In this document: positions 12,154-32,804 of the stretch, one piece after another
How the letters are laid out: the number at the start of each line of letters is the position of its first letter
Numbering within the stretch: the stretch's first letter is position 1
Assembly: GCA_025450755.1 (NCBI GenBank)
Contig: JANWLR010000037.1
Coordinates: forward strand, 1-35,840
Source of the DNA: Sphingomicrobium sp.
Lineage (GTDB): Bacteria > Pseudomonadota > Alphaproteobacteria > Sphingomonadales > Sphingomonadaceae
Length of the DNA stretch: 35,840 nt
Reading direction: 5' to 3'
The notes under the pieces: generated by a model
Told to the model about the DNA's origin: nothing
The model's database searches: none
The model's input: the letters and a program-made list of their open reading frames with translations, nothing else
Made by a program: the position numbers and the translations under genes

Positions 12154-12165
12154 GAGGCTGAGTCT

Positions 12166-12948: not shown

Positions 12949-12994
12949 AGGCGCATCTTGGCAGTGGAGCGGCTGTGAGGCTAGCGTCGCTTCT

Positions 12995-17354: not shown

Positions 17355-17612
17355 ATGCCAAGGCATTTGCTCAAGCTCGTTGCTCTCGCCGCGGTCTTGT
17401 TGGTCGGACCTGCAGTCGCGGGGCAGGTTGAAGCCGCAAAAGCGGCGCAGCACCGTTGGGACTGCCCGAAGAAACGAGCTCAGGCGGCGGCTGCGGGCGC
17501 ATGGCATGCACCCCAGCAGGCGAAAGGGGCAACCACGATCACGCTGCCCGACAGGGTGCCGGATGGTTCAATCTTCGATCTCGGCTGGCGCCACGGAATC
17601 TTCGCGCCCTAG
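17355..17612 (+). CDS. Small exported protein, function unknown
   Basis: An 85-residue protein preceded by a strong GAGGAGG at 17341-17347; that spacing favours ATG 17355 over ATG 17349. Residues 1-23 form a good signal peptide (LLKLVALAAVLLVGPAVAG). The mature part is Ala/Gln/Lys-rich and holds a single Cys and a C-terminal IFDLGWRHGIFAP segment. I do not recognise a family. Its stop codon is interlocked with the stop of lysS in CTAG (17609-17612), so the two convergent messages overlap by four coding bases. Confidence 0.6.
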   Translation: MPRHLLKLVALAAVLLVGPAVAGQVEAAKAAQHRWDCPKKRAQAAAAGAWHAPQQAKGATTITLPDRVPDGSIFDLGWRHGIFAP

Positions 17613-19165
17613 GCAGTAACACTTTCCAATGCCTCGGCGATGAGCTTGCGGCTGTTGTCGATCCCATAGAGCGCAATGAAGCTGCCCATGCGCGGGCCCT
17701 GGCTGGAGCCGAGAAGGGTCTCGTAAAGCGCTTGGAACCAGCTGCGCAAATTCTCCTTGCCGAAGTGCTTCTTGCCGATTTCGAAGACCTGAGTCTGGAT
17801 GTCCTCGGCGGCCGTGTCCGACCGGAGCTGCGCAAGCTTAGTATCCAGGTCGCGAAGCGCATCGGCCTCCATCTGGCTTGGCAGCCGGCGCTTCAGTCCC
17901 GGCACGACGAAATCGCGCGCGTAATTGACGGCAAGGCCAATCAGCTCGTCGAGCTCGGGCTCGCTCTCGGGTGAGGTTCCCGGGGCATAGCGCTGCACGA
18001 ACCTCCATGCGATCTCCTTGTCCTGCAGTCCCGGAAGGCTGACGAGGTTGAGCAGCAGCCCGTAGGTCACCGGCAGCTTCTCGGTCGGCACCTTGCCGGC
18101 GTGGATCTGGTGCACCGGGTTGCCGAGCTTCTGCTCGACCGGCTGGTTCGGGTAATTGCCGCGGAACTGCCAATATTCATCGACCGCGCGCGGGATCACG
18201 CCGATGTGCAGGCTCTTGGCCCGCTTGGGCTCGCGATAGATGTAGAAGGCGAGGCTTGGCTCTGAGCCGTAACGCAGCCATTCCTCAAGGCTGAGGCCGT
18301 TCCCCTTCGACTTTGAGATCTTTTCGCCATTCTCGTCGAGGAACATCTCGTAGTTGAACCCCTCTGGCGGGCGGCCGCCCAAGATTCGCGCGATCTTGCC
18401 CGATTGGACGACGCTGTCGATCAGGTCCTTCCCCGCCATCTCATAGTCGACACTGAGCGCGACCCAGCGCGCCGCCCAGTCGACCTTCCATTGCAGCTTG
18501 GCCGAGCCGCCGAACGCCGACTGGTGAACCCGGCTTCCGTCCTCGTCGTCGAATGCGATGAGCCCCGCTTCGGCATCGATGACCTCGACCGGAACCTGAA
18601 GCACTCGGCCGCTGGCGGGCGAGACCGGAAGCACGGGCGAATAGGTCTTGCGGCGATCCTCGCGCAAGGTTGGAAGCATCACACCCATGATTGCCTCGAA
18701 GCTGTGCAGCACCTTGCGAATGACCGCATCGAAGCGGCCGCTGGTATAGCAGTCTGTCGCCGACAGGAATTCGTAGTCGAAGCCGTAGCGGTCGAGGAAA
18801 TGCTGCAGCATCGCGTTATTGTGATGCGCGAAGCTTTCATGCTCGCCGAACGGGTCGGGGACTTGTGTCAACGGCTTGCCGAGATTCTCCTCCAGCATCT
18901 GTTGGTTGGGGACGTTGTCAGGGACCTTGCGCAGGCCATCCATATCGTCGCTGAATGCGATCAGGCGGGTCGGATTGCCCGTCAGTTCCTCATAGGCCTG
19001 GCGCACGAACGTGGTTCGAGCGACTTCGTTGAACGTACCGATGTGCGGCAGGCCCGACGGGCCGTAGCCGGTTTCGAAGATCAGCGGATCGCCTGCAGGC
19101 TTTCCGTCCGGCCAGCGTTTCAGGAGCTTGCGTGCTTCCTCATAGGGCCAGGCCTTCGACTGCAT
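17609..19165 (-). CDS. lysS: Lysine--tRNA ligase, class I
   Basis: Class I lysyl-tRNA synthetase, 518 residues, the archaeal-type enzyme that also serves most alphaproteobacteria in place of the class II form. It charges tRNA-Lys with lysine using ATP. The HIGH-equivalent is PHIGT at 40-44 within ETGYGPSGLPHIGT, and the KMSKS-equivalent is KISKSKGNG. The C-terminal part is the helical anticodon-binding cage. ATG 19165 gives the usual short lead; the 36 codons upstream run into the divergent helicase leader and look non-coding. Only 71 bases separate it from the helicase start. Stop interlocked with the preceding small exported gene. Confidence 0.95.
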   Translation of the reverse strand: MQSKAWPYEEARKLLKRWPDGKPAGDPLIFETGYGPSGLPHIGTFNEVARTTFVRQAYEELTGNPTRLIAFSDDMDGLRKVPDNVPNQQMLEENLGKPLTQVPDPFGEHESFAHHNNAMLQHFLDRYGFDYEFLSATDCYTSGRFDAVIRKVLHSFEAIMGVMLPTLREDRRKTYSPVLPVSPASGRVLQVPVEVIDAEAGLIAFDDEDGSRVHQSAFGGSAKLQWKVDWAARWVALSVDYEMAGKDLIDSVVQSGKIARILGGRPPEGFNYEMFLDENGEKISKSKGNGLSLEEWLRYGSEPSLAFYIYREPKRAKSLHIGVIPRAVDEYWQFRGNYPNQPVEQKLGNPVHQIHAGKVPTEKLPVTYGLLLNLVSLPGLQDKEIAWRFVQRYAPGTSPESEPELDELIGLAVNYARDFVVPGLKRRLPSQMEADALRDLDTKLAQLRSDTAAEDIQTQVFEIGKKHFGKENLRSWFQALYETLLGSSQGPRMGSFIALYGIDNSRKLIAEALESVTA

Positions 19166-19236
19166 TGCGGCAGAACGGATGTCGTCAGCGGCCAAATTCG
19201 TTGCTCTTCTGTTCTTGTAGCGGCAGGGTCGTGGAG

Positions 19237-21933
19237 ATGGCTGCTCCTTTGCCTCTTCCCGCGCTCCACGCAACCCACGCCGGAATCTGGCTGGCCGGCG
19301 GCGATGGCGAAGTCCACGAAGCGAGCCGCGGGGAAGCGATTGCCCGAGCTGCCGAGACCCCGCACATCATCCTCAACGCGCCGCTGGTGGGGCAAAGGCT
19401 CGGCTATCCCGAGCTCAGCGGTCTCGACCTAATGGAGCTGTTCGCCTTCCTGCCTCCGGCGCGATTTGCAGTGCCGACGGTGGCCGGACTAAGTCGCTCA
19501 GTAGGTATTGATCCGCCAGCGAGCGAGGCAGACGCGGCGGCCTCGCTCGCTGGCATCGCCGAAAAGCTGCTGATGGCGCTTGCCGACCCTTCCTGGGGCG
19601 AGCGCGAAGGCGCGTGGACGAGCAACGCCACGCTGCATCGGCTGGGGTGGGGCTGGGCGCCGCTGATCGGCTCGCGGCTCGAGAGGCCCGAACGCGGCGA
19701 GCGCATGCTCTTCTCGCGGCTCAAGCAGTGGGAAGAAGCGGGCGAACTGCCGCCGCCACGTACAGTCATCGTTTCTCCCGAAGATGCGCGGGCACGTCTC
19801 GACCGGCTGACCGGCTGCGCCGAGGCTCGTGAGGGGCAGCGAGCAATGGCGGAAGCGATTACGAAAATATTCGCGCCAAAGCCCGCAAAGGGTTCGCCGA
19901 ACCTGCTGCTCGCCGAGGCTGGTACCGGCATCGGCAAGACGCTCGCCTATCTTGCGCCCGCGTCGCTGTGGGCGGAAGCCTCCGGCGGCACCGTTTGGGT
20001 GTCGACCTTCACCAAGGCGCTCCAGCGGCAACTCGACGGCGAAGGACCGAAGCTTTTCGCCAATTCCGAAGAGCGGGCACGGCGAATCGTGGTGCGCAAG
20101 GGCCGCGAGAATTACCTCTGCCTCTTGAACCTCGAAGACGCGCTGCAGGGCGCGTTCAGCGGCCGCGCTGCAATTCTCGCACAATTGGTGGGACGCTGGG
20201 CGGCGTTCACTAAGGACGGCGACATGGTCGGAGGCGACCTGCCGGGCTGGCTTCCGAGCCTGTTCCGGCGCACGGGCGCAACCGCGCTGACCGACCGCCG
20301 CGGCGAATGCATCTATGCCGGCTGCCCGCACTATCGCCGCTGTTTCATCGAGCGCGCCGAGCGCGCCAGCCGAGAGGCAGACATCGTCATCGCCAACCAT
20401 GCGCTGGTGATGGTCAATGCCGCGCGAGCGCGCGAGGACGCGCCGGGACGAATCCTGTTCGACGAGGGCCATCATCTGTTCGAGGCGGCCGATTCGACCT
20501 TCGCGGTCGCGTTCGGCGGCCAGGAAGCCATCGAATTGCGGCGCTGGATCGTCGGGCCGGAGGGCCGCTCGCGAGGCCGGCGGCGTGGTCTTGCAGCGCG
20601 GTTGATGGATGTCGCATCCTACGACGAGGAGGGCGCAGAGGCGCTTGATGCGGCAGTCGAGGCGGCAAAAGCGCTGCCGTCCGACGGCTGGCTGCAGCGG
20701 CTGAATGAAGGCGCTCCGTTTGGGCCCGTGGAGGCGCTTCTCGTCGAAGTGCGCGGCACAGTTTACGCGCGGGCCAAAGCGCAGGAGGCGGGCTACGGGC
20801 TGGAGACCGAACTCGCCGAGGCTGACGGTGCCCTGGTTTCCTCTGCTGCTGTGGCAATGCAGGCGCTGGAGTTGCTCCAGAAACCGCTCGCAGCACTCGC
20901 GCGGCGCCTCGAGGCAGTGCTCGAGGACGCGCCCGATTGGCTCGACAGCCAGGCGCGCGCGCGGGTCGACGGTGCGATTCGCGGACTGGCTTGGCGGCGG
21001 GAGACGCTTGCGGCGTGGATTGCTTTGCTCGCGCGTATCGGTGGCGAAGCCGACCCTGAGTTCGTCGACTGGCTGGCGGTCGATCGAATCGACGGCCGCG
21101 AGTTCGATGTCGCGATTCATCGGCGCTGGCTCGATCCAACCCGACCGCTGGCGACTGCGGTCATTGCCCCGGCGGACGGCGTTCTTGTCACTTCTGCGAC
21201 GCTGCGTGGAGGCGAGGACTGGCCAGCCGCCGACGCGCGCACCGGTGCGGCACACCTGCCCGTCCCCCCGCTCCATTTCGAGGCCGAGAGCCCGTTCGAC
21301 TATGCTGGCTGCTCCGAGGTTCTGATCGTCACCGATGTAAAGCAGGGCGATATCGCAGCCCTCGCCGGCGCCTATGCCCGGCTGATTGCGGCAGCCAATG
21401 GCGGAACGCTCGGCCTTTTCACGGCGATACAGCGGCTGAAAGCGGTGCATGCGCGGATCGCCGACCGGCTCGCGCGGGACGGTCTTCCGCTGCTTGCTCA
21501 ACATGTCGATCCGATCGACGCGGGGACGCTCGTCGACATCTTCCGCGACGATCCGCGTGCGTCGCTTGTCGGAACGGACGCACTGAGGGACGGGGTCGAC
21601 GTGCCTGGCGAATCGCTTCGGCTGGTTGTGATGGAACGAGTGCCGTGGCCTCGGCCGACCGTGCTTCATGCAGCGCGGCGAATGGCTGGAGGCGGAAGCG
21701 CCTATGACGACCGAGTCGTCCGCGCGCGGCTCGCCCAGGCGTTCGGGCGGTTAATCCGTCGCCAGGGTGATTGCGGCCTGTTCGTGGTTCTTTCAGCCGC
21801 TTTTCCGTCGAGACTGCTTTCGGCATTCCCGCCAGGAGTCCCCGTGCGGCGAGTCCCGCTCGACCACGCGATCGCGCGCGTGGAGCAGAGGCTCGGAACT
21901 GCCGTGCCTCTGCCGATGGAACGAGTCGAATGA
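19237..21933 (+). CDS. DinG/XPD-type ATP-dependent DNA helicase with N-terminal extension
   Basis: Superfamily 2 iron-sulfur helicase, 898 residues, expected to unwind DNA 5' to 3' in repair or replication restart. Walker A is EAGTGIGKT at 227-235 and the DEAH-type box is DEGH at 409-412. The four cluster cysteines are C295 (RENYLC), C358, C363 and C369, and motif VI is QAFGRLIRR near the end. The first 200 residues precede the helicase core and look like a worn DnaQ-type exonuclease fold (NAPLVGQRLGYPELSGLDLMEL) without the catalytic acids. ATG 19237 is chosen because upstream codons are antisense to the lysS start. E. coli DinG has about 716 residues; the extra length here is this N-terminal part. 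It overlaps the next gene in ATGA. Confidence 0.9.
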   Translation: MAAPLPLPALHATHAGIWLAGGDGEVHEASRGEAIARAAETPHIILNAPLVGQRLGYPELSGLDLMELFAFLPPARFAVPTVAGLSRSVGIDPPASEADAAASLAGIAEKLLMALADPSWGEREGAWTSNATLHRLGWGWAPLIGSRLERPERGERMLFSRLKQWEEAGELPPPRTVIVSPEDARARLDRLTGCAEAREGQRAMAEAITKIFAPKPAKGSPNLLLAEAGTGIGKTLAYLAPASLWAEASGGTVWVSTFTKALQRQLDGEGPKLFANSEERARRIVVRKGRENYLCLLNLEDALQGAFSGRAAILAQLVGRWAAFTKDGDMVGGDLPGWLPSLFRRTGATALTDRRGECIYAGCPHYRRCFIERAERASREADIVIANHALVMVNAARAREDAPGRILFDEGHHLFEAADSTFAVAFGGQEAIELRRWIVGPEGRSRGRRRGLAARLMDVASYDEEGAEALDAAVEAAKALPSDGWLQRLNEGAPFGPVEALLVEVRGTVYARAKAQEAGYGLETELAEADGALVSSAAVAMQALELLQKPLAALARRLEAVLEDAPDWLDSQARARVDGAIRGLAWRRETLAAWIALLARIGGEADPEFVDWLAVDRIDGREFDVAIHRRWLDPTRPLATAVIAPADGVLVTSATLRGGEDWPAADARTGAAHLPVPPLHFEAESPFDYAGCSEVLIVTDVKQGDIAALAGAYARLIAAANGGTLGLFTAIQRLKAVHARIADRLARDGLPLLAQHVDPIDAGTLVDIFRDDPRASLVGTDALRDGVDVPGESLRLVVMERVPWPRPTVLHAARRMAGGGSAYDDRVVRARLAQAFGRLIRRQGDCGLFVVLSAAFPSRLLSAFPPGVPVRRVPLDHAIARVEQRLGTAVPLPMERVE

Positions 21934-22445
21934 AACGCCTGACGCTCCTCAGGCATGCCAAATCGAACTGGGGCCATGAGGAGGTCGACGATCTCAATCG
22001 TCCACTGAACGAACGCGGCTGGAAGGCGGCGCGGCGCATTGGAAAGGAGTTCAAGCATCGCGGGATCCACTTCGATCTCGTCCTCGCGAGCACAGCCGCG
22101 CGGGTGCGCGAAACGATTGACGGTTTAAAGGAGAAGTTCGAATTTGATTGCGAGATCCTTTTCGAACAGCAGCTCTATCTCGCGAGTGCCGAGACGCTGC
22201 TTTCGACCGTACGCGGCCTTTCGGAAACCGTGCATTCGGCGCTGCTCGTCGGGCACAATCCCGGTCTGGAGCGACTTGTCATTGAGCTCACCCGTGATGA
22301 CGACCATGGCCTCAGGCGGCGCGTCTCGAATAAATTCCCAACTGCTGCGCTTGCGGTGATTGAACTCCAGGCCGAAAGCTGGAGCGACGTTGCGCCAGGA
22401 TGCGGTCAGGTCGTCGACCTGATCCTGCCCAAGGAATTGGCCTAG
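21930..22445 (+). CDS. SixA-like histidine phosphatase
   Basis: Histidine-phosphatase (phosphoglycerate-mutase-like) family member of 171 residues, the short SixA type. The phospho-acceptor is His9 in LLRHAKSNW, the second catalytic His is in LLVGHNPGLE, and an Arg is present in the STAARVRET segment. SixA in E. coli removes phosphate from histidine of phosphorelay proteins, but many homologues act on other substrates. The start overlaps the helicase stop as ATGA, so translation is likely coupled; a functional link to the helicase is not established. The stop interlocks with the convergent merR stop in CTAG (22442-22445). Confidence 0.87.
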   Translation: MKRLTLLRHAKSNWGHEEVDDLNRPLNERGWKAARRIGKEFKHRGIHFDLVLASTAARVRETIDGLKEKFEFDCEILFEQQLYLASAETLLSTVRGLSETVHSALLVGHNPGLERLVIELTRDDDHGLRRRVSNKFPTAALAVIELQAESWSDVAPGCGQVVDLILPKELA

Positions 22446-22825
22446 AGCTCGAGCGCTTCCGCCAACCGGTCTCGAAGTGCAATCAGCCGGAACACATCGA
22501 TATTGCGCGACGGTTCATCGGCGGTCGGCTGGAACTGAGGGGCTGCGCGCGAGGCCGAAACCGACTCCTGATCTCCCTTCGCTCGAAGCAACTTCTGGAC
22601 GCCCCGGACGGTATAACCTTCTTCGGTGAGCAACCGGTGGATCTTGCGCACCAGCGCGACGTCCGAAGGACGATAATAGCGCCGATTGCCGGCTCGCTGC
22701 ATCGGCCGCAACTGCGGGAACTTTGTCTCCCAGTAACGGAGAATATGCTGGGCGACGCCAAGCTCCTGCGACAATTCGCCGATCGTCAGAAAAGCGCCGG
22801 GGTCTTTGTCGCCGGCGCTAGCCAA
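22442..22825 (-). CDS. MerR-family regulator, TTG start
   Basis: DNA-binding regulator of the MerR type, 127 residues. The winged helix-turn-helix reads FLTIGELSQELGV, then ILRYWETKFPQL and NRRYYRPSDV, followed by a short tail with no effector-binding cysteines. It follows ihfA in many alphaproteobacteria. No ATG or GTG fits: the domain begins close to the ihfA stop, and TTG 22825, two bases after that stop and preceded by GAAGGG, is the best start. The longer open frame lies antisense in phase to ihfA and is not conserved-looking. Likely co-transcribed and translated by reinitiation after ihfA. Confidence 0.82.
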   Translation of the reverse strand: MASAGDKDPGAFLTIGELSQELGVAQHILRYWETKFPQLRPMQRAGNRRYYRPSDVALVRKIHRLLTEEGYTVRGVQKLLRAKGDQESVSASRAAPQFQPTADEPSRNIDVFRLIALRDRLAEALEL

Positions 22826-22827
22826 GG

Positions 22828-23160
22828 TCAGCCCTTCGCGATTTCGTCGCGCATGATCTGGCTTGCGCGGAAGGTCATCACCCTCCGTGGCGCGATCGGC
22901 ACCTCCACGCCGGTCTTTGGATTGCGGCCTATCCGCTGGCCCTTGTCGCGCAGGATGAAGGTACCGAAGCCGGAGACCTTCACATTCTGGCCGACCGCGA
23001 GCGCGTGGCACATGTGGTGCAATACCCGCTCGACGAGGCCCGCGGACTCGGCACGCGACAGTCCGAGCCGCCGGTGGACGACATCGGCAAGGTCAGCACG
23101 CGTCAAAGTGTTGGCGGCGTCCGCTTCCTTGTTGACCCGTGCGATCCCGAGATCGGCCAT
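22828..23160 (-). CDS. ihfA: Integration host factor subunit alpha
   Basis: IHF alpha, 110 residues, a DNA-bending protein that works as a heterodimer with IHF beta in recombination, replication and transcription. The DNA-inserting arm shows [12 protein letters not shown] with the conserved proline, and the core VKVSGFGTF is characteristic. ATG 23160 is chosen because GGGAG sits 7 bases upstream; ATG 23166 is too close to it. The N-terminus is slightly longer than in E. coli IhfA (99 residues). It lies between fabH and merR in the conserved alphaproteobacterial cluster. Confidence 0.95.
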
Positions 23161-23269
23161 GTTCATCTCCCGCCCAATACGGCGATGCCCCCCGCCGTCT
23201 CGATTACGCACTCGTAACGGAAATAGGCTCCGTCGGCAATTCGACTAATCAACTGATATTCCAATTTTT

Positions 23270-24226
23270 TCAATACCTGAGCGCTGCTGCGCCCCATGTA
23301 AACCCACCACCCATCGCTTCAAGAACGACGACGTCGCCACGCTTTATTCGCCCGTCCTTAACAGCCGTATCGAACGCCAGCGGAACCGATGCGGCCGACG
23401 TGTTGGCATGGCTGTCGACGGTGACAACCATCTTTTCCGATGGAAGGCCCAATTTCTTCGCCGTAGCGTCGAGAATGCGCGCATTCGCCTGATGCGGAAC
23501 GACCCAGTCGACGTCCGCTGCCGTAAGGCCGGCGCTTTCCAGCACCTCATTGAGCACTTCGGCGAGGTTGACGACCGCGTGGCGGAATACCTCGCGGCCC
23601 TTCATTCGCAGCTTGCCGACCGTTCCGGTGGTGGATGGCCCGCCGTCCACGAAGAGCAGGTCGTTGTGGCGGCCGTCGGCGTGAAGCTTGGTCGACAGGA
23701 TGCCTCCTTCGGTCTCCTCAGCGCTAAGGACCAGCGCCCCGGCGCCATCCCCGAACAGGACGCAGGTTGCGCGATCCTCCCAATCGAGGATCCGACTGAA
23801 TGTCTCGGCCCCGATCACCAGCGCCTTGTTGGCGCTGCCCGCGCGCAACATCGCATCGGCGACCGAGAGGGCATAAAGAAACCCGGTGCAAACTGCGTGC
23901 ACGTCAAAGGCAATGCAGTCGTTCACTCCAAGCGCCGCCTGAACCTTCGTCGCCGTCGACGGGAAGGTCTGGTCCGGTGTCGCGGTTGCAAGCACGATGA
24001 GATCGATTTCGCCCGCGTCGATTCCGGCATGCTCGAGCGCTCGGCGGGCGGCCTCCGTCGCGAGGCTGCCGGTCGTCTCACCGTCCGACGCGATGAAACG
24101 GCTGCGGATGCCGGTGCGCTCGACGATCCACTTGTCGCTGGTGTCGACGCTCTGCGCGAGCTCGTCATTGGTGACTCGCCGCTTCGGCAGTGCACTGCCG
24201 AGGCCGGCGACGACCGAGTGCCTCAC
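23270..24226 (-). CDS. fabH: Beta-ketoacyl-ACP synthase III
   Basis: Starts fatty acid chains by condensing acetyl-CoA (or another short acyl-CoA) with malonyl-ACP; 318 residues, cytoplasmic. The catalytic triad is Cys113 (AVCTGF), His245 (VPHQANAR) and Asn275 (SHANTSAA). The start is a GTG at 24226 that overlaps the plsX stop as GTGA (24223-24226), so the two are translationally coupled. The 109-base gap to ihfA holds an A/T-rich tract after the stop and may contain a separate ihfA promoter. Confidence 0.96.
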
Positions 24227-25272
24227 TCCGCCGCCTCGCCGGCGAACGCGTGCGCCCGAAAATTGTCGAGATCGTCGCCGATCTTGCGGGTGATGTCGTT
24301 GCGAACCATGCTCGCGGCGACACGGATCGCGTTGGCGACGCCCTTCGCGTTGGCGCTGCCGTGGCTTTTCACGACGAGGCCGTTGAGGCCCAGGAAAACC
24401 GCGCCATTGTGGTTGTTCGGATCGAGATGGACCTTCAGCAGGTTCAATGCCGGGCGCGACAGAGCGAACCCCGCTTTCGACCGAAGCGAGCTCTTGAATG
24501 CCCGGCGCAGCAGGTCGGTTACGAAGCGCGCCGTGCCCTCTGCGGTCTTGAGGGCAATATTGCCGGAGAAGCCGTCGGTAACGACAACGTCGACAGCGCC
24601 GCGGGAAAGCTGGTCGCCTTCGGTAAATCCGTCGAACCGGAACGGCAGGTAGTCGGCCTCGCGAAGGAGCGCGGCGGCGTCCTTTAGCTCATCGGTGCCC
24701 TTCAATTCCTCGGTGCCGATATTGAGCAGCTTGACGCGCGGAGCGGCAATGCCGAGCACGCAGCGGGCATAAGCTGCACCCATGACCGCGAATTGGACGA
24801 GGTTCTGGGCATCGCACTCGGTGTTCGCGCCGAGGTCGAGCATGATCACGTCATTGTCGCCGAGCGTCGGAAGGAGCGCAGCGAGCGCTGGCCGGTCGAT
24901 TCCCGGCATGGTCCGAAGCGCGAGCTTGGACATCGCCATCAGAGCGCCCGTGTTCCCGCCCGACAGCGCCGCGTCAGCGATCTGCTCCTTTACGGCATTG
25001 ATCGCCATGCCCATCGACGTCGTGCGGGCACGGCGGATTGCCTGGCTGGGCTTCTCGCTTGGCGAGATCGCCTCGGGCGAGTGGACGACGAGCGAATTTC
25101 CGGCGAGATTGCGATGCTCCGCGAGTTGAGCCTCCACCTGCCGCTCGTCGCCATAGAAAGTGAACTGGAGCGTCGCGTCTTTCCTGATCGCGCGCGAGGC
25201 GCCGGCGATCATTGCCGCCGGGCCCGTATCGCCTCCCATGGCGTCGATGGCGATGCGCGGGCCTTTAGCCAT
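24223..25272 (-). CDS. plsX: Phosphate acyltransferase
   Basis: PlsX makes acyl-phosphate from acyl-ACP, the first step of glycerolipid synthesis in bacteria that use PlsY. 349 residues, starting [20 protein letters not shown] and [13 protein letters not shown] are conserved segments, and [14 protein letters not shown] lies near the C-terminal half. It lies 35 bases downstream of rpmF and overlaps fabH in GTGA, the common rpmF-plsX-fabH arrangement linking ribosome supply to membrane lipid synthesis. Confidence 0.96.
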
Positions 25273-25307
25273 TCGTCGCTATCGACCTCTTCAATCGCTG
25301 CGGTGGC

Positions 25308-25487
25308 TCAGGCCTCGGACGACACGATTTCGCGGCCGTTATAATAGCCGCAGGCCGAGCACATGTTGTGCGGGAGCTTGAGCTCACCGCAGTTGGGGCA
25401 TTCCTGGAATGCTGTCGCCTTCAGCGCATGATGGCTGCGACGCATGTTCCGCTTCGACGGCGAGGTTTTTCTCTTGGGGACAGCCAT
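25308..25487 (-). CDS. rpmF: 50S ribosomal protein L32
   Basis: L32, 59 residues, beginning [19 protein letters not shown] with the expected basic N-terminal tail. It keeps the zinc-ribbon cysteines (CPNCG and CSACG), so it is the C+ form. ATG 25487 is chosen; the eight upstream codons are not conserved. First gene of the rpmF-plsX-fabH-ihfA-merR run. Confidence 0.97.
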
Positions 25488-25595
25488 TGCGGCACCTTCA
25501 AAAAAGATCAAACAACAATAAAAATGGCGACGATCTGCGCCTCATCTCAACGGGTGTACCCGCGGGTGGCGGCCGGATCGTCGCGAACAGCGGCC

Positions 25596-25623
25596 CCTAT
25601 AGCGAAAAGGCCGCTTGTTGCAA
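25596..25623 (-). promoter_or_regulatory. Candidate sigma-70 promoter for rpmF operon
   Basis: On the minus strand TTGCAA (25618-25623), a 16-base gap, then TATAGG (25596-25601). Four of six bases match each consensus hexamer. The implied leader of about 100 bases before rpmF is plausible for a ribosomal-protein operon. Read by eye only. Confidence 0.4.
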
Positions 25624-25668
25624 GGGCGCGCGAGCGATGAAGATTAAGAATAGGGGAGGGCAATCGCA

Positions 25669-26067
25669 ATGACTATAGTTCCAGTCTTCCTTGGAACGGC
25701 AGCAGCGGCTGCGCTGGTCAACGGCTGGCTTGTGGCGAGGACCGGCAAGCTCCGGCGAGCGCTCGGGATCAGTGTCGGCGACGGAGGTAACGACGCGTTG
25801 CTCAGGCGAATGCGGGCCCAGGCCAACTTCATCGAGACCACGCCGTTCTTCCTGTTTCTCATTCTGGGCCTCGAGCTGTCGGGTGTGAACCAGATTGCGC
25901 TCGCGATCGTGGCCGCTCTGTTCATCCTGGCGCGGCTTTCGCACGGTGTTGGAATGGAGGGCGGCGAGAAGGCGCGCTTTCGAGTGTACGGAATGACGAC
26001 GACGACATGCGTAACGATCGCGCTAATCCTCTGGGCGATCGTCTGCCTCCTAAAAAGCTTCGTCTAG
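25669..26067 (+). CDS. MAPEG-family membrane protein
   Basis: Integral membrane protein of 132 residues with four hydrophobic segments, in the MAPEG family (glutathione- or eicosanoid-related membrane enzymes). The signature RMRAQANFIETTPFFLF carries the conserved Arg, Asn, Glu and Pro. AGGGGAGGG lies just upstream of ATG 25669. Bacterial members often have glutathione transferase or peroxidase activity. The neighbouring convergent glyoxalase-II-like hydrolase also belongs to a fold that uses glutathione thioesters, but a shared pathway is only suggestive. Stop interlocked with that gene in CTAG. Confidence 0.88.
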   Translation: MTIVPVFLGTAAAAALVNGWLVARTGKLRRALGISVGDGGNDALLRRMRAQANFIETTPFFLFLILGLELSGVNQIALAIVAALFILARLSHGVGMEGGEKARFRVYGMTTTTCVTIALILWAIVCLLKSFV

Positions 26068-26723
26068 GCAGCCAGAGCGGCGTCGCCGACGAACGGGTTG
26101 GTCGCGCGCTCATGGCCGAAGGTCGACATCGGGCCATGGCCCGGGACGAAGGCCGTCTCATCGCCCATCGGCCACAGCCGCTCCGTGATTGAGTGGATCA
26201 GTTGCTGCTGGTTGCCGTGCGGGAAGTCCCAGCGGCCGACCGAGCCACGGAACAGGACGTCGCCGACCAACGCCAGCTTCGACTGGGGATGGTGAAAGAC
26301 GATATGCCCGGGCGTGTGGCCGGGACAGTGACGGACATCGAAAACCAGCTCGCCGACCGTGGCCTGATCACCGTCAACCAGCCAGCGTGACGGCTCGAAG
26401 GGATATCCGGCAATTCCATATTTCGCGCCGTCCTCGGCGAGCCGCTCGATCCAGTAGATGTCGGCCTGGTGGGGACCCTCGATTTGCACTCCAAGCGCCT
26501 CGGCCAAGATGCCGGCACTCCCGCAATGATCGATATGGCCGTGAGTTAGCAGGATCTTCTCGATCGTGACGCCAGCTTGCTTTGCAGCGGCCTTCAGACG
26601 CGGCAGGTCGCCGCCAGGATCGACGAAGGCACCGCGCATTGTCGCCGTGCACCACAGCAAGGTGCAATTTTGCTGAAGCGGCGTAACCGGGATGACCGCT
26701 GCCTTTAGCGGCGGCTCGCTCAT
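26064..26723 (-). CDS. MBL-fold hydrolase, glyoxalase-II/YcbL-like
   Basis: Metallo-beta-lactamase-fold hydrolase, 219 residues. Binuclear metal ligands are visible: HGHIDH at 61-66, His136/His140 in HCPGHTPGH, Asp155 in VGDVLF and His196 in VPGHGP. It lacks the C-terminal substrate-binding extension of classical GloB and resembles the shorter type II enzymes such as YcbL, which hydrolyse glutathione or other thioesters. ATG 26723 overlaps the dipeptidase stop in ATGA (26720-26723), so it is probably the second gene of a two-gene operon. Confidence 0.9.
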   Translation of the reverse strand: MSEPPLKAAVIPVTPLQQNCTLLWCTATMRGAFVDPGGDLPRLKAAAKQAGVTIEKILLTHGHIDHCGSAGILAEALGVQIEGPHQADIYWIERLAEDGAKYGIAGYPFEPSRWLVDGDQATVGELVFDVRHCPGHTPGHIVFHHPQSKLALVGDVLFRGSVGRWDFPHGNQQQLIHSITERLWPMGDETAFVPGHGPMSTFGHERATNPFVGDAALAA

Positions 26724-28015
26724 TTCCACGGATCTGTGGTCGAGCGAGGCTGAAGCGTCGCCATAGCCGGCGCTTCGTCCTTCATCGAGGCGGAGACCGC
26801 CTCGGCTTGCCGCAGGACCCGCAGCAGGTTGCCCCCGGCAAGCTTGGCGAGGTCCGCGTCGTCCCAGCCGCGGCGGATCAGCTCGGCAAACAGCAGTGGA
26901 TAACCGCTGACACTGTTCATCCCAGCGGGTGCCCCGTCCCAGTCAATACCGTCGAGGTCGCCGCCCAGGCCGACATGATCATGGCCCGCAACCATGACGA
27001 TATGCTCGATATGATCGGCCACGAGCCCGACATTTGCGCGCGGCGTCGGATGCGCGGCCAGCCAAGCCTTCATCGCTTCGTCGCGGCGCATGGGCTGGCC
27101 GGTGTAGAGGTTCTTCAGACGGGCATCCTCGGCATCCTTAGAAGCGCTCCAGCTCATGAACTCCGGCGACAAGTGCCCGAGGAAGAAATTCACCATCACC
27201 ACGCCGCCATTCTTCTGAAGCAGCTGGAGCACGTCGTCGGGCACGTTGCGGGGATGGTCGGCGAGCGCCCGCGCGTCGCTGTGGCTGAAGATCACCGGCG
27301 CCTTGCTGACCGCGAGCGCCGCGCGCATCGTCTCGGGCGAAACGTGGCTCAAATCGACGAGCATCCCGAGGCGGTTCATCTCATGGATGACGATCCGTCC
27401 AAACTCGTTGATCCCGTTCCACTTGGGATCGTCAGTCGCGCTATCGGCAAACTCGTTGTTCTTGAAGTGCGTCAGCGTCATGTAGCGCGCCCCAAGCTCG
27501 TAGAACTGGCGAAGTGCAGCGAGGCTTCCGCCGATCTGGTGGCCGCCCTCAATCCCGATCAGCGACGCGACCTTCCCGCTCTTGTGGATGCGCACCACGT
27601 CGTCGGCCGTGCGGGCGAGCTCGAGGTCGTTCGGATAGGCTTTGACGAGGCGCTTCACGATGTCGATCTGCTCGATCGTCTCGCGGATCGCCGTGTCTCC
27701 GGTCACCGAGCTTGGGATGTAGACCGACCAGAACTGCCCCCCGAGGCGACCCTGATGCAGTCGCGCCATGTCTGTCATTAGCGGGTGATCCGCCCGCTTG
27801 TCCGTTCCGCTCGCCAGGTCTTCAATGCTGAGGTTGTAGTTTTCGCGAAGCTGCTCCGCGAGGTCGTTGTGGCCGTCGATCAGCGGCGTGCCTTTGAGGA
27901 TGCGGTCGATGCGCGCCTGGACCGAGGGGGAGATGGATTTGTCAGTCGGTTGTGCCACGGCCGCCGATGATAGCAGCATTGCGGAGGCGAACAGGAGTGC
28001 GGCTTTAGCTGTCAT
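26720..28015 (-). CDS. Exported membrane-dipeptidase-type (M19) peptidase
   Basis: Renal-dipeptidase family M19 enzyme, 431 residues, cleaving dipeptides with two zinc ions. A signal peptide ends at AAVAQP (ATG 28015 chosen to give it). Metal ligands are His49 and Asp51 (DGHNDL), the Glu in GIEGGHQIGG, and histidines in DLSHVSPE and FSHSDAR. It is likely periplasmic or lipid-anchored elsewhere; no lipobox cysteine is seen. Co-transcribed with the downstream MBL hydrolase through an ATGA overlap. Confidence 0.93.
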   Translation of the reverse strand: MTAKAALLFASAMLLSSAAVAQPTDKSISPSVQARIDRILKGTPLIDGHNDLAEQLRENYNLSIEDLASGTDKRADHPLMTDMARLHQGRLGGQFWSVYIPSSVTGDTAIRETIEQIDIVKRLVKAYPNDLELARTADDVVRIHKSGKVASLIGIEGGHQIGGSLAALRQFYELGARYMTLTHFKNNEFADSATDDPKWNGINEFGRIVIHEMNRLGMLVDLSHVSPETMRAALAVSKAPVIFSHSDARALADHPRNVPDDVLQLLQKNGGVVMVNFFLGHLSPEFMSWSASKDAEDARLKNLYTGQPMRRDEAMKAWLAAHPTPRANVGLVADHIEHIVMVAGHDHVGLGGDLDGIDWDGAPAGMNSVSGYPLLFAELIRRGWDDADLAKLAGGNLLRVLRQAEAVSASMKDEAPAMATLQPRSTTDPWK

Positions 28016-28100
28016 GCCAGGGGGTTTAGGAACAGCCGCAAAGTCCTGCAATCAGCGATGGTCCCGGGGGGCTTGTTCTTTGCCGTTCGCGCGGTGATGA

Positions 28101-28340
28101 ATGATGAGGATGAGCGATCTTGAAGAAACGATGCATTTCGATCCGGACGAAGGACTTGCCGACCTCGACATGCATCTTGACCGGTTGAAAGCCGCCGCCG
28201 AAGGCCAAGGTTTCAAGTTCGACCGCCATGCCGCCCGCAACGAGCTGCAGGCCGCGACCTTCGGAAAGAGGCGAACGGCGATTGCCCGGCTGCTGCTTTC
28301 GCCGACAGGCGCGATGGCGATCGAGGTCAAGTCGGACTAA
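28101..28340 (+). CDS. Hypothetical 79-residue protein
   Basis: Unrecognised small protein, charged and helical in its first half (DEGLADLDMHLDRLKAAAE), with a basic middle (FGKRRTAIARLLL) and ending AIEVKSD. ATG 28101, 28104 and 28110 are all possible starts. Divergent from the M19 dipeptidase and convergent with pdeM, whose stop interlocks with its own in CTAA (28337-28340). Codon use looks like its neighbours, and the tight packing favours a real gene. Confidence 0.55.
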   Translation: MMRMSDLEETMHFDPDEGLADLDMHLDRLKAAAEGQGFKFDRHAARNELQAATFGKRRTAIARLLLSPTGAMAIEVKSD

Positions 28341-28999
28341 GCGGCAAGCCGAAAACGCAGCAGTCGGTTGGACACCGGCACCAGAGCCGATGCTTCACTT
28401 CCAACAGAACCAAGAATCTCCGGATGGTGCGCATCGAGCCCGCCCGTCAGCGAACCAAATGCCGGCATGATGATCTTGGTCGCGGAGGTGACGAAGCAGC
28501 GCCGAGAGATCCGGCGGCCGCGGAGGTGAACCCTGAGCTTGGGGTGGAAGTGGCCGGAAATTTCCGGCCGCGTCTCACCGCGCACAGCTTCGTGGCGCAG
28601 GATGATCCCGCCGATCTCGACTTCATCGACGATGGAACCGCCGCAATGGTCGGCAAAGCCCGGATCGTGGTTGCCAACGATCCAGGTCCAGTCGAGCATC
28701 GAGGTGAGGGCACTCAGCAGTTCGCGCGCTTGTCCGGGTAAGCGGTCACAGCCGAACTGGTCGTGGAAGCTGTCTCCGAGGCAATAGAGGCGCGCCGCGC
28801 CAGTGCGCTCCACCTCAGCCGCCAACGCGGTCAGCGTCGCGTGCGAATCATAGGGGGGCAGGAATTGGCCCAGACGCGCGAACCAGCTCGCTTTCTCGAG
28901 ATGCAGGTCGGCGACGAGAAGCGTCTGCCGCGACGGCCAATAAAGCGCGCCGTCGGCTGTAGCTTCGAACGTTTCGCCTGCGAACGAAAAGGGAACCAT
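28337..28999 (-). CDS. pdeM: Ligase-associated DNA damage endonuclease PdeM
   Basis: Calcineurin-like metallophosphoesterase of 220 residues matching the PdeM group of DNA repair nucleases. Metal motifs in order: ADLHLEK, LGDSFHD, VGNHD and a late GHFHPK. In many bacteria pdeM sits beside an Lhr-type helicase, an ATP-dependent ligase and an exonuclease. Here the neighbours are rpoZ upstream and a hypothetical gene downstream, so it is detached from that set. ATG 28999 is the only sensible start. Confidence 0.87.
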   Translation of the reverse strand: MVPFSFAGETFEATADGALYWPSRQTLLVADLHLEKASWFARLGQFLPPYDSHATLTALAAEVERTGAARLYCLGDSFHDQFGCDRLPGQARELLSALTSMLDWTWIVGNHDPGFADHCGGSIVDEVEIGGIILRHEAVRGETRPEISGHFHPKLRVHLRGRRISRRCFVTSATKIIMPAFGSLTGGLDAHHPEILGSVGSEASALVPVSNRLLRFRLAA

Positions 29000-29086
29000 G
29001 GGCCAGCTCTAACTGTCGGCCGAGATTCGTTCCAGTGGGATTGAACCGCATGCTCGCCTGCCCCTCGGACAGGCTGCGCGTGGGAT

Positions 29087-29428
29087 TTATTCGTAGTCCC
29101 CGCCCGACGGGGTCGGACGCGGCGGGGCGGCGGCAGTCAGGCGCAGCGCCTCGGCGGCTTCGCTCAGCGATGCCAGCTCTTCGGTCTCGTCTTCCTCATC
29201 GATCCGGACCTTCTGCAGATTGGTGACGATGGCCTCCTCGAGATCCCGAGGCTTCACCGTCACGTCGGCAATCTCGCGCAGCGCGACGACCGGATTCTTG
29301 TCGCGGTCGCGGTCGATGGTCAGGTCGGCGCCGCCCGAGATCTGACGTGCGCGCTGGGCCGCCATCAGGACGAGGTCGAACCTGTTCGGGATCTTGTCGA
29401 CACAATCTTCAACCGTAACGCGCGCCAT
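29087..29428 (-). CDS. rpoZ: RNA polymerase omega subunit
   Basis: Omega, 113 residues, helping fold the beta-prime subunit and, with it, forming a ppGpp site in proteobacteria. The N-terminal half reads [20 protein letters not shown], then [10 protein letters not shown] and [11 protein letters not shown], all family-typical; the acidic Glu/Asp-rich tail varies between species. ATG 29428 is the conserved start. Confidence 0.96.
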
Positions 29429-29484
29429 CAATCGCTCCGCAAAGCTATTCCAAGCCAGGAATATGGGATGTGAGGAAGGCGTCG

Positions 29485-29514
29485 CCAATAGCTTGCGGTG
29501 CCACGAAAAGTCAA
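29485..29514 (-). promoter_or_regulatory. Candidate sigma-70 promoter for rpoZ
   Basis: Minus strand TTGACT (29509-29514), 18-base gap, TATTGG (29485-29490). The -35 is five of six to consensus; the -10 is weak. It is well placed about 55 bases upstream of the rpoZ start. Confidence 0.42.
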
Positions 29515-29528
29515 CAAATCTGCAGCCT

Positions 29529-30701
29529 ATGGCCGATCAGGGCACCGAGACTGTCAGCAGGGCGGCTATCCGGGCTGAGATCGCCGGCAATCGCCTTGAG
29601 TTGATCGAGAGCGGAGAAGCACGGCTTCGGGTCCTGCTCGAGATGATCGGCGGCGCCCAGCAATCGATCAAGATGCTGATGTACATGTTCAACCCCGACG
29701 CGGTCGGTCACGAGGTTCGGGACGCGCTCGTCGCCGCCGCCCAGCGCGGAGTGCGAGTGAATGTGCTGATCGATGGCTTCGGCTCGGTCGCGTCGCCGGA
29801 ATTCTTCGCACCGCTCCGGGAAGCCGGCGGAGACGAATGCGTCTTCAATCCGAGCTACGGCCGCTCATACCTCATGAGGAACCATCAGAAGCTGGTTGTG
29901 GTCGACGATTGGCTTGCGATCATCGGCGGAGCGAACATCGACGACACCTACCTGCACGACGGATCGCTGAGGGATTGGCGCGATTTGTGGCTCAAGCTCG
30001 AAGGGCCCGAGGTCGCCATGCCGTGCCGCTATTTCGACACACTGTTTCGCTGGTCGAAGCGCAAGAATCCAAGCCTTAAGTTTCTTCGACGCCAGCTCGC
30101 CGAATTCAGCGAGTGGCGCGGCCCCCTACAGTGGAAGTTCAGCGGGCCTTTGAGCCTTCGCAACAGCTGGTGGCGGAGCATCGGCCAGGACATCCGTCGC
30201 GGGCACCGCCTCGACATGATCTTTGCTTATTTCGCCCCGCCGGGCGCGATGGTGCGGCGGATCGGCCGCCTTGGGCGGCGTGGACGCGCGCGGATCATCA
30301 CCGCCGCCAAATCGGACAATAATGCGACGATCGCGGCCGCGCGGCACAGCTACAGCCGGTTGCTTCGCCGCCATGTCGAGATGTACGAATATCAGCCGGC
30401 CAAACTGCATACCAAGCTCGCTATCGTCGACGACATCGTCCACATCGGCTCTTCGAACTTCGATTACCGAAGCCTGTACATCAACCTCGAGGTGATGCTT
30501 CGGATCAAGGACGCGGGCTTCGCCGCGGAGATGCGCGGCTATTTCGAGCGCGAGCTAGAAGAGTGCAAATGGATCACTCCGGCTCTGCACAAACGGCGTG
30601 CGACCCTCTGGCGGCGAATCAAGTGGGCCGTCTCTCACTTCCTAGTGAACGTGACGGATTATACGGTCACTCGGCGGCTCAACTTCCGGGCCGAGCGTTA
30701 A
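29529..30701 (+). CDS. Phospholipase D/cardiolipin synthase-like protein
   Basis: Two-HKD phospholipase D superfamily enzyme, 390 residues. The first motif is HQKLVVVDD with His119, Lys121 and Asp126; the second is HTKLAIVDD in the C-terminal half, followed by GSSNFDYRS. Both are complete, so activity is expected. Cardiolipin synthases of the ClsB type have this length and lack N-terminal membrane helices, as here. ATG 29529 is chosen; the longer frame upstream is antisense to rpoZ. Interlocked stop (TTAA) with the convergent methyltransferase. Confidence 0.9.
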
Positions 30702-31339
30702 TCCGAAGGCTCGCCTTTATAGGCCCAGAACAGGGTGGCCGGCGGCACATTGATCCATTCGAAGCCGCGTTTGATCGGCTCGAAATGCGGCTTGATGAAA
30801 TCCAGCACCTTCGGGCTGAACTGATAGACCAGGAACGCGCCGCCCGGACGGATTACCTTGGCAGTCGCTTCCGCAATGTCGTCCCCCACGCCGGGCGGGA
30901 GAGTCGAAAACGGAAGGCCGGAGAGAACATAATCTGCATCGCCGAGGCTCCGTTCTGCGAGAATCTTTTCGACGTCCGCGGCCGAGCCGGTGACAGTGAC
31001 CAGCCTCGAATCGCTGATCTGCTCGCGAAGATAAGATGTGAAATCCGGGTTGGTGTCGATCGTCAGCAACGTCGCATCGGCACCGAGGCGGTCTAGCACG
31101 GGGCGAGTGAAGGTGCCCACGCCCGGGCCATATTCGACGAAGAGCCTGGTGTTCGCCCAGTCCACGGGGTCGAGCATCTTGTCGATCAGAACGCGGCTCG
31201 ACGGAATGATCGAGCCGACCATGACTGGGTTCTTCAAAAATCCGCGCAGGAATTGCCACTGCGGGCTTGGACTGCGGCGGTCGCGGCGGCGCTGAAGGCG
31301 TCGTGAACCTTTCAGCGTGCGCGCGGGTGAGGTCGACAT
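30698..31339 (-). CDS. PmtA-like SAM-dependent methyltransferase
   Basis: Class I methyltransferase, 213 residues. The SAM loop is VEYGPGVGTF at 68-77, followed by an acidic residue in LLTIDTNPDF. The pattern FLRGFLKNPVMVGSIIPSS and the late YQFSPKV match bacterial phospholipid N-methyltransferases of the PmtA group, which turn phosphatidylethanolamine into its methylated forms. A basic N-terminus (about 25 residues, rich in Arg) could help membrane binding. GGGAG precedes ATG 31339. Adjacent to a cardiolipin-synthase-like gene, it suggests local lipid remodelling genes, though they are transcribed towards each other. A ribosomal RNA dimethylase-like role is less likely. Confidence 0.78.
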   Translation of the reverse strand: MSTSPARTLKGSRRLQRRRDRRSPSPQWQFLRGFLKNPVMVGSIIPSSRVLIDKMLDPVDWANTRLFVEYGPGVGTFTRPVLDRLGADATLLTIDTNPDFTSYLREQISDSRLVTVTGSAADVEKILAERSLGDADYVLSGLPFSTLPPGVGDDIAEATAKVIRPGGAFLVYQFSPKVLDFIKPHFEPIKRGFEWINVPPATLFWAYKGEPSD

Positions 31340-31505
31340 GGAAACTCCCGTGGGGCGACGAAGGCCGAGAGCGTTGGCAAATGCGCCGCCGCTTGGCAAG
31401 TTTCGAACGTCAAAGGCCGGAAGCAGTCGCGCGCCGTTCTGCGAAACGGGCAATTCGCGCGACGAAGAGGTTTCCGAGCGTTTGCGACGGCTCTAAGCCT
31501 CGGAT

Positions 31506-32804
31506 GTGGCCTCAATCGCGAGCAATGGAGCGGTCGGCAAGGCGGCGCTGACCAATAGTCACTTCGTGCTGCTCTATTGCGCGATGCTCGTTGCATCGTC
31601 GGGCAACACCGCGCTTCAATCCGTCATGCCGGCGATCGGCCGCGAGATCGGAATCGAGGATTTCTACGTCGCCGTCGCCTACACCTGGTCCGCCGTACTG
31701 TGGGTGCTGCTTGCGCCCTTTTGGGCCGAAAAGAGCGACCATCACGGCCGCAAGACCCTGACGATGATGGGCATCAGCGGCTTCATCCTGTCGATGACGC
31801 TCTGCGGGGTCGCCATGTTCGCGGGACTTCACCGTTGGATCGGCGGCGGACTGACCTTCGGCTTGTTTGCGATCTTCCGTGCGATCTATGGCGGCCTCGG
31901 CTGCGCCACCCCGTCGGCGACTCAGGCCTATCTCGCTTCGAAGACGAGACGCAGCGGACGCGTTGCGGCACTTTCTGCTCTGTCGTCCTCGTTCGGGCTT
32001 GGGACGATCATCGGCCCTGCAGTGGCTCCCCTGTTCGTGCTTCCAGTCGTCGGGCTCGCGGGTCCTTTGTTCGCCTTCGCGGCAATCGCTGCCGCAGTGT
32101 TCTTCGCAATCGTGCTGTGGCTTCCGGACGACCGCAGTGGCCGCCGGCTCGGGCATGGTGCAGCGATGAGCTATCCGTCGCTGGCAAGCCCGCCGACGGG
32201 GGCGAGCGTCACGGCGGCAACTGCGCCGCGCAGACTGAAGCGGCTCAGCTGGAAGGACCCGCGCGTTCGGCCATGGATTCTTGCTGGCGTCGTCGCGGGC
32301 CATGCACAGGCGGCGACTCTGACGTGCATTGGTTTCTTCGTGATCGATCGCCTTCATCTTCGCGCAACTGCTTCCGAAGGACCGATCGCGATCGTCATGA
32401 TGGCTGGGGCGGTGGCAACACTCGGCGCGCAATGGGGACTGATTCCGCGGCTTCGGCTAAATCCTCGTTCGCTGATCCTGTGGGGCGCGTTGATCGCCTG
32501 CGCCGGTCTTCTCGGAACGATGCTGTCGAAGGACCTCTACGGGATCACGATCGGCTTTGCCGTTGCCTCTCTCGGATTCGGATTCACGCGGCCGGGCTTC
32601 ACTGCCGGCGCATCGCTCGCGGTTCCTCTCGCAGAACAAGGGGCGATCGCCGGTGTAATCACGTCGGCAAACGGAATCAGCTATGTCCTGGCGCCCGCAG
32701 CTGGAATCGGCCTTTACGGCTGGAACCACGACCTGCCGTTCGCCGCATTTGCACTATTGCTCGTCGTTCTTGCAACGGTTGGCAGTCGGCGACTGGCCGC
32801 CTAG
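31506..32804 (+). CDS. MFS transporter, GTG start
   Basis: Major facilitator superfamily transporter of 432 residues with about 12 hydrophobic helices and a central hydrophilic loop near residues 210-250. The motif-A-like sequence is SDHHGRKTLT between helices 2 and 3. No upstream ATG fits; GTG 31506 starts MASIASNG. The substrate cannot be told: drug or small-molecule efflux is the usual guess for this type. It ends interlocked with the cdc48-like gene in CTAG (32801-32804). Confidence 0.87.
   Translation: MASIASNGAVGKAALTNSHFVLLYCAMLVASSGNTALQSVMPAIGREIGIEDFYVAVAYTWSAVLWVLLAPFWAEKSDHHGRKTLTMMGISGFILSMTLCGVAMFAGLHRWIGGGLTFGLFAIFRAIYGGLGCATPSATQAYLASKTRRSGRVAALSALSSSFGLGTIIGPAVAPLFVLPVVGLAGPLFAFAAIAAAVFFAIVLWLPDDRSGRRLGHGAAMSYPSLASPPTGASVTAATAPRRLKRLSWKDPRVRPWILAGVVAGHAQAATLTCIGFFVIDRLHLRATASEGPIAIVMMAGAVATLGAQWGLIPRLRLNPRSLILWGALIACAGLLGTMLSKDLYGITIGFAVASLGFGFTRPGFTAGASLAVPLAEQGAIAGVITSANGISYVLAPAAGIGLYGWNHDLPFAAFALLLVVLATVGSRRLAA

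What the first reader, a model, noticed from the sequence alone, without database searches (positions are those of the whole stretch)
17609..32804. Six of ten convergent pairs end with stop codons interlocked in exactly four bases
Tail-to-tail gene ends overlap by precisely four bases at 17609-17612, 22442-22445, 26064-26067 and 32801-32804 (all CTAG), 28337-28340 (CTAA) and 30698-30701 (TTAA). Each tetramer holds the stop codon of both strands. Two other pairs overlap by 11 (16316-16326) and 20 bases (2763-2782). Four-base stop overlap is a known preferred geometry, but 60 percent in one window is striking, and CTAG is often a rare tetramer in bacteria. There is no room for ordinary terminators, so convergent transcripts must overlap. 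Inference: this lineage may rely on Rho, polymerase collision or RNase III processing of 3' duplexes.
Basis: partly seen in the sequence, partly recalled or inferred. Interest (0 to 1): 0.72.

Follow-up and report, generated by a model that had tools for sequence, protein, structure and literature searches.

The report
Facing genes with interlocked stop codons
Many facing gene pairs in this bacterium end in a shared four-letter stop signal; this is a known, tightest-possible way for two genes to meet, unusually common in this genus but explainable without any new machinery.

Summary
The geometry is already in print (Lillo & Krakauer 2007, passages). Facing stops cannot overlap by 1, 2, 3 or 5 bases, so four is the minimum.

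It is a lineage trait: 23 of 85 pairs in this genome outside the window, 15 of 57 in five same-genus genomes, 3 of 51 in three other families of the order, 10 of 240 in other Sphingomonadaceae loci, 3 of 31 in sampled E. coli. The window is weakly above its own genome (P about 0.04).

Relatives often keep the geometry while letters swap among the four tetramers. A mutation simulation without reward for the geometry gives similar rates under hand-set TAG usage and slight deletion bias. Four still exceeds the simple extension model, so a cost of longer overlaps, or a preference for four, remains.

Interlocked ends lack terminator-like hairpins (1 of 58), as do most ends in this genome. Rho-type termination is plausible, general and untested.

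The parts
17609..17612 (.). CTAG interlock: 87-aa ORF (17349-17612 +) with class I lysyl-tRNA synthetase (17609-19273 -)
   Evidence: 87-aa partner weakly matched in 1 of 29 relatives (G022, overlap 4, CTAA)
22442..22445 (.). CTAG interlock: histidine phosphatase (21930-22445 +) with MerR-type regulator (22442-23011 -)
   Evidence: partner matched with E<=1e-20 in 7 of 29 relatives, overlap 4 in 6 of these 7
26064..26067 (.). CTAG interlock: MAPEG protein (25669-26067 +) with metallo-beta-lactamase-fold protein (26064-26729 -)
   Evidence: no convincing partner beside the orthologue in 26 relatives (one chance-level hit, E 0.5); found with overlap 4 (CTAA) in L279
28337..28340 (.). CTAA interlock: conserved short ORF, 76-79 aa (28110-28340 +) with a conserved protein weakly like metallophosphatases (28337-28999 -)
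   Evidence: partner matched in 17 of 21 relatives, overlap 4 in 14 of these 17
30698..30701 (.). TTAA interlock: phospholipase D-like protein (29394-30701 +) with methyltransferase (30698-31453 -)
   Evidence: partner matched in 14 of 18 same-genus loci, overlap 4 in 5 of these 14, 3-base gap in 5
32801..32804 (.). CTAG interlock: MFS transporter (31506-32804 +) with CDC48-type AAA ATPase (32801-35110 -)
   Evidence: partner strongly matched in 15 of 18 same-genus loci, overlap 4 in 9 of these 15
16316..16326 (.). 11-base convergent overlap: DUF885 protein (14449-16326 +) with PEP-CTERM protein (16316-17020 -)
2763..2782 (.). 20-base convergent overlap: 2003-2782 + with ROK family protein (2763-3680 -)
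12154..12165 (.). convergent pair with a 12-base gap: M1 peptidase (9508-12153 +) with alpha/beta hydrolase (12166-13098 -)
6292..6582 (.). convergent pair with a 291-base gap: PilZ protein (6016-6291 +) with FAD/FMN oxidoreductase (6583-9003 -)
   Evidence: ORF 6251-6688 + lies across the gap, without a Pfam match and not predicted as a gene

Best explanation
These are ordinary tail-to-tail gene junctions that have settled in the tightest arrangement the stop codons allow. Facing stops cannot overlap by 1, 2, 3 or 5 bases, and any TAA or TAG stop preceded by a pyrimidine (YTAR) already carries a stop in one frame of the other strand. When a neighbouring gene loses its stop or a short deletion pulls two genes together, its frame can run to that ready-made stop and the pair interlocks. 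Most single changes of the inner TA break both genes at once and are removed; changes of the outer letters can turn CTAG into CTAA, TTAG or TTAA and keep the lock. The state is therefore easy to enter and slow to leave. This genus (small-genome Sphingomonadaceae, near Sphingomicrobium; name inferred) is at the high end, probably because its junctions are compact and TAG after C is common. Shown: geometry, genus-wide rate, persistence with swapped letters, stop usage, compactness. Inferred: the mutational path, deletion bias, and mild selection against longer overlaps. Termination is inferred to be mainly Rho-dependent or diffuse, as elsewhere in this genome.
For: Spike at 4 in own genome, 29 of 95 pairs with the window. 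Same-genus genomes 15 of 57. Persistence: in orthologous pairs an offset of 4 is matched by 4 in the other genome in 218 of 324 ordered comparisons, against 22 of 150 for other offsets within 30 (not independent). Tetramers swap within orthologue families. Simulation with no reward for the geometry: family-like stop usage, balanced indels and little overlap cost give 0.048 at 4 (observed 10 of 240); TAG-rich usage with 55% deletions gives 0.24 to 0.36 over three overlap costs (observed 29 of 95 and 15 of 57); 4 is the stickier state in each of the 33 settings run. Compactness: convergent gaps over 30 are 32 of 95 own and 18 of 57 genus, against 155 of 240 in other Sphingomonadaceae. Co-directional genes at least 20 bases from the next gene end YTAR in 0.296 own and 0.275 genus against 0.147. 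Literature: PMC2174442 names the same four tetramers (passage); PMC3887535 reports that Kingsford et al. 2007 explain convergent overlap lengths by extension to the next stop (passage); PMC4161906 favours a neutral by-product view of overlapping genes (passages).
Against: Among overlaps of 30 or less, 4 exceeds the pure extension model: own 29 of 43 against 40% expected (P 2.5e-4), same-genus 15 of 17 against 42% (P 1.1e-4), near loci L275-282 8 of 9 against 23% (P 6e-5). So selection against longer overlaps or for four is needed; I cannot separate them. Simulation parameters were set by hand on a small grid, and at 55% deletions the genus-like runs give too few gaps over 30 (0.18 to 0.21, observed 32 of 95 and 18 of 57). 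CTAG share in own genome (21 of 29) is above the simulated 0.56 to 0.61, though same-genus is 8 of 15. The near loci have a high rate (8 of 27) with YTAR endings of only 0.175 (40 genes), which does not fit the stop-usage part. Single genomes vary (1 of 14 in G020, 5 of 10 in G024). Own genome has more overlaps of 5-30 (14 of 95) than the same-genus sample (2 of 57), which a common cost would not predict.
Confidence: 0.78

Rival explanations
1. The four-base interlock is selected for a function: it fixes where opposing RNA polymerases and ribosomes meet, so that head-on collision or Rho ends both transcripts with the shortest RNA duplex.
For: Excess over the extension model, conservation of the geometry at several junctions where a partner is found (14 of 17, 9 of 15, 6 of 7), terminator-like hairpins at background at interlocked ends, Rho and RNase III present.
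Against: Hairpins are scarce at most ends of this genome, interlocked or not. Three of six junctions mostly lack the offset or the partner in relatives (PLD/methyltransferase 5 of 14; no convincing MAPEG partner in 26; 87-aa partner in 1 of 29). A model without function reproduces much of the pattern.
Confidence: 0.1
2. Small-sample and selection effect: the window only looks special because it holds many convergent pairs and was chosen for the pattern.
For: Window against rest of the genome P 0.042, permutation P 0.045, before allowing for the choice of window.
Against: The trait itself is genome- and genus-wide (23 of 85, 15 of 57) and common in the matching blocks of ten relatives (32 of 83 pairs; those blocks were chosen through the window's genes). 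The window is the only one of the own-genome loci with at least 4 pairs that reaches 60%. So the effect may explain the 60%, not the phenomenon.
Confidence: 0.6
3. Annotation artefact: several plus-strand partners are spurious ORFs that happen to end at CTAG.
For: The 87-aa ORF at 17349 is hardly conserved; many overlapping ORFs of 80 aa or more exist in this window (160 listed).
Against: The other five pairs have conserved or Pfam-matched genes on both sides.
Confidence: 0.04

Closest known systems
Four-base convergent gene overlaps (CTAA, TTAA, CTAG, TTAG) described by Lillo & Krakauer 2007 (PMC2174442; passages seen; authors recalled)
   Same: Same geometry, same four tetramers, same jump at length 4 in convergent overlaps; the paper also notes more convergent overlaps in Caulobacter among alpha-proteobacteria.
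   Different: Here the share is about a quarter of sampled convergent pairs in one genus, mostly CTAG in the own genome, and its persistence with swapped letters across orthologues is measured.
Random 3' extension model of Kingsford, Delcher & Salzberg 2007 (paper not held; content seen only as cited in PMC3887535)
   Same: Extension to the next stop explains major patterns of convergent overlap lengths.
   Different: The observed share at 4 exceeds a simple version of the model computed here, so a cost of longer overlaps or a preference for 4 is needed.
Convergent transcripts of Rickettsia prowazekii (PMC3027695; abstract and outline seen)
   Same: A bacterium of reductive evolution (an alphaproteobacterium, recalled); most convergent transcripts examined did not stop at a specific site between the genes.
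   Different: Pairs there have intervening regions; I found no RNA data for the present genome and did not search for any.
Zymomonas mobilis terminators (PMC7566282; passages seen)
   Same: Member of the same order (recalled, not looked up).
   Different: There the convergent class is over-represented among ends mapped to intrinsic terminators (34% against 7.5%); here terminator-like sites are scarce at convergent ends.

Membership tests
Four-base convergent stop overlap | Both stop codons contained in one YTAR tetramer | tested here: met
   six sites
Four-base convergent stop overlap | Both overlapping ORFs are real genes | tested here: met
   five of six pairs by Pfam or conserved homologues; the 87-aa ORF is inconclusive
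Neutral extension origin (Kingsford-type) | Share of overlaps at 4 equals that expected from the next stop in a random frame | tested here: not met
   29 of 43 against 40%, 15 of 17 against 42%, near loci 8 of 9 against 23%; other Sphingomonadaceae 10 of 25 against 35%, compatible
Neutral extension origin (Kingsford-type) | Whole offset distribution reproduced by mutation alone plus a cost of longer overlaps | tested here: inconclusive
   share at 4 reproduced with hand-set parameters, gaps over 30 too few in the genus-like runs
Rho- or collision-terminated convergent pair | No intrinsic terminator at the junction | tested here: met
   terminator-like at 1 of 58 own and 0 of 30 same-genus interlocked ends, shuffled 2.4 and 1.0; simple consensus only, hairpins deeper than 70 bases past the stop not scanned
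Rho- or collision-terminated convergent pair | Mapped RNA 3' ends inside the opposite gene | not testable with these tools
   no RNA data at hand

The most novel reading that the evidence does not exclude
In this genus the shared stop tetramer is actively selected as a fixed meeting point of opposing transcription and translation, so that the interlock works as a minimal two-way insulator without hairpins.
Probability: 0.08. Interest if true: 0.65.

Novelty: new member of a known kind. Interest (0 to 1): 0.3.

Why it matters
It gives a clean natural case for telling mutation from selection in gene packing: one genus with several times the rate of its family in the loci sampled, orthologous junctions that keep the geometry while the letters change, and few intrinsic terminators. 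It also warns that a striking window can rest on an ordinary stop-codon rule.

Tried and rejected
CTAG as a special signal: rejected as the main cause. It is depleted overall (346 found, 824 expected in the 666 kb sample); 21 sites are interlocks and 59 are single stops, and orthologues swap it for CTAA, TTAG and TTAA.

The first extension model used all genes and so counted the interlocked genes themselves; it was redone without convergent genes and then with co-directional genes at least 20 bases from the next gene, because tight co-directional genes use TGA in 81%. The excess at 4 in own and same-genus samples stays in all three.

TAG excess at convergent ends as a separate signal: not seen in the own genome (29% and 34% at gaps of 0-30 and over 30, 37% at co-directional gaps of 100 or more), but the five same-genus genomes do show 38% at gaps of 0-30 against 16% (40 and 61 ends). 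Left open.

E. coli counts come from four 50 kb stretches only, counted by eye from the tables: 31 CDS pairs, 3 at overlap 4; tRNA and pseudogene neighbours were left out. Genus against E. coli: P 0.06, so not a firm contrast.

The split of the 80 loci into 8 near (L275-L282) and 72 other is mine, from rank and names; identities at the border overlap (L282 72%, L283 73%). Undivided the count is 18 of 267. All 80 lie around one gene (lysyl-tRNA synthetase), and one search kept the best 80 of 588. G029 gave few predicted genes (52 in 80 kb), so its 0 of 11 is weak. The Fisher tests ignore relatedness.

Conservation count: I gave it 30 of 30 loci, 19 of 30, 19 of 30, 27 of 30, 30 of 30 and 22 of 22 (the rest were paralogues or distant matches). 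Own loci are not counted. Dropped as weak: partners with E above 1e-20 for MerR, E 0.08 for one CDC48 locus, and for LysRS and MBL hits with E from 0.05 to 1 (one of these, L032 at E 1, also ends at overlap 4). Of the 17 short-ORF rows, one has the partner stop 517 bases away, which may be a broken or misread frame.

Literature. Only one search used the word Sphingomicrobium; it listed 10 of 326 papers and none of these ten holds the word. I make no claim that the genus rate is unpublished.
Full report
What is there. The window is contig C37 of a 2.19 Mb draft genome in 101 contigs, 84% complete. The closest named records by lysyl-tRNA synthetase are Sphingomonas and Sphingomicrobium MAGs at 80-81%, so the host is a small-genome member of the Sphingomonadaceae; the genus name is an inference. 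All overlaps in the finding are exact. Against RefSeq in one E. coli stretch it gets 7 of 8 convergent pairs right, both four-base overlaps included, and misses one small gene in the eighth.

Why four. From the stop codons alone, facing stops cannot overlap by 1, 2, 3 or 5 bases, and an overlap of 4 must read CTAG, CTAA, TTAG or TTAA, so TGA is excluded. This was already in print: PMC2174442 (Lillo & Krakauer 2007) gives the same four tetramers and the jump at length 4 in convergent overlaps (passages).

How common. Own genome outside the window: 23 of 85 pairs, 17 of the 23 CTAG. Five same-genus genomes, 80 kb each: 15 of 57, from 1 of 14 to 5 of 10. Five genomes of three other families of the order: 3 of 51 (all). 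Eighty loci of Sphingomonadaceae around lysyl-tRNA synthetase: 18 of 267, which I split into 8 of 27 in the eight nearest loci and 10 of 240 in the rest. E. coli K-12, four 50 kb stretches counted from the annotation: 3 of 31. Genus 38 of 142 against 10 of 240 gives P 3e-10; within the same genomic region 8 of 27 against 10 of 240 gives P 9e-5; genus against E. coli P 0.06. These tests ignore relatedness. The window itself, 6 of 10, is only weakly above the rest of its genome (P 0.042; permutation 0.045).

Conservation. Where a partner gene was matched beside the orthologue: metallophosphatase-like/short ORF 14 of 17 at overlap 4; CDC48/MFS 9 of 15; MerR/histidine phosphatase 6 of 7; PLD/methyltransferase 5 of 14 (another 5 have a 3-base gap). 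No convincing MAPEG partner was found in 26 relatives, but L279 has the pair with overlap 4. The 87-aa ORF beside lysyl-tRNA synthetase has one weak relative among 29, also at 4. Letters swap among the four tetramers. In 120 convergent pairs from the window, the matching blocks of ten relatives and eight near loci, an offset of 4 is matched by 4 in 218 of 324 ordered comparisons, other offsets within 30 by the same offset in 22 of 150. Comparisons share genomes and are not independent.

Is it more than mutation? If a gene runs in a random frame into the end of its neighbour, the expected share of overlaps at 4, among overlaps of 30 or less, is 40% for own and 42% for same-genus gene ends; observed 29 of 43 and 15 of 17 (P 2.5e-4 and 1.1e-4). 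The near loci give 8 of 9 against 23%. Other Sphingomonadaceae fit the model (10 of 25, expected 35%) (all). A simulation of substitutions and indels that asks each gene to keep a stop within 12 codons, with a small length cost on overlaps above 4, gives 0.048 at 4 with family-like stop usage and balanced indels, and 0.24 to 0.36 with TAG-rich usage and 55% deletions as a further overlap cost is raised. Observed: 10 of 240, and 29 of 95 and 15 of 57. In each of the 33 settings run, 4 is stickier than other offsets. Parameters were set by hand, and the genus-like runs leave too few gaps over 30. So no reward for the geometry is required for the rate, but a cost of longer overlaps, or some preference for four, is.

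What sets the genus apart. Its convergent junctions are compact (gap over 30 in 32 of 95 own and 18 of 57 genus, against 155 of 240 in other Sphingomonadaceae) and its co-directional genes end YTAR twice as often (0.296 and 0.275 against 0.147). Against this, the near loci reach 8 of 27 with YTAR endings of 0.175 in 40 genes.

Termination. Terminator-like sites are at background at interlocked ends (1 of 58, shuffled 2.4; same-genus 0 of 30, shuffled 1.0) and only somewhat above it at convergent gaps over 30 (8 of 64, shuffled 3.0). The E. coli stretch gives 8 of 10. Rho and RNase III genes are present. In Rickettsia prowazekii most convergent transcripts examined were reported not to stop at a specific site (PMC3027695, abstract). 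Rho-dependent or diffuse termination is therefore likely for the genome as a whole; nothing found here ties it to the interlock.

Verdict. Real, genus-wide in the samples taken, and of a known kind. The added elements are the high rate in this genus and the measured persistence of the geometry under changing letters. The special-termination reading is not excluded but not needed.

Noticed in passing
convergent pairs in same-genus blocks L255-L274: A second small peak at a gap of exactly 3 bases (10 of 83 pairs; 5 of 14 PLD/methyltransferase junctions) that I did not explain.
   Followed up: no
own genome sample, 40 stretches plus window: Overlaps of 5-30 bases are commoner in this draft genome (14 of 95) than in five same-genus genomes (2 of 57); could be assembly or finder error or real.
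   Followed up: no
28110-28340: Short ORF of 76-79 aa, matched in 17 relatives at 61-87% identity, with a below-cut-off match to only the first 60 positions of the class IV aminotransferase model: possibly a trimmed enzyme domain kept as a small protein.
   Followed up: partly
own genome sample, co-directional genes: Stop usage depends on context: TGA 81% when the next gene is within 20 bases, 43% when it is 100 or more away.
   Followed up: partly
32801-35110: A CDC48-type ATPase with the CDC48 N-terminal domains, matched in the 18 same-genus relatives searched (split or cut in two); in the 12 order-level relatives only partial or AAA-domain-level matches.
   Followed up: no
17349-17612: 87-aa ORF with a signal-peptide-like start (judged by eye), nearly unconserved; may be a young or fast-evolving gene beside lysyl-tRNA synthetase.
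   Followed up: partly
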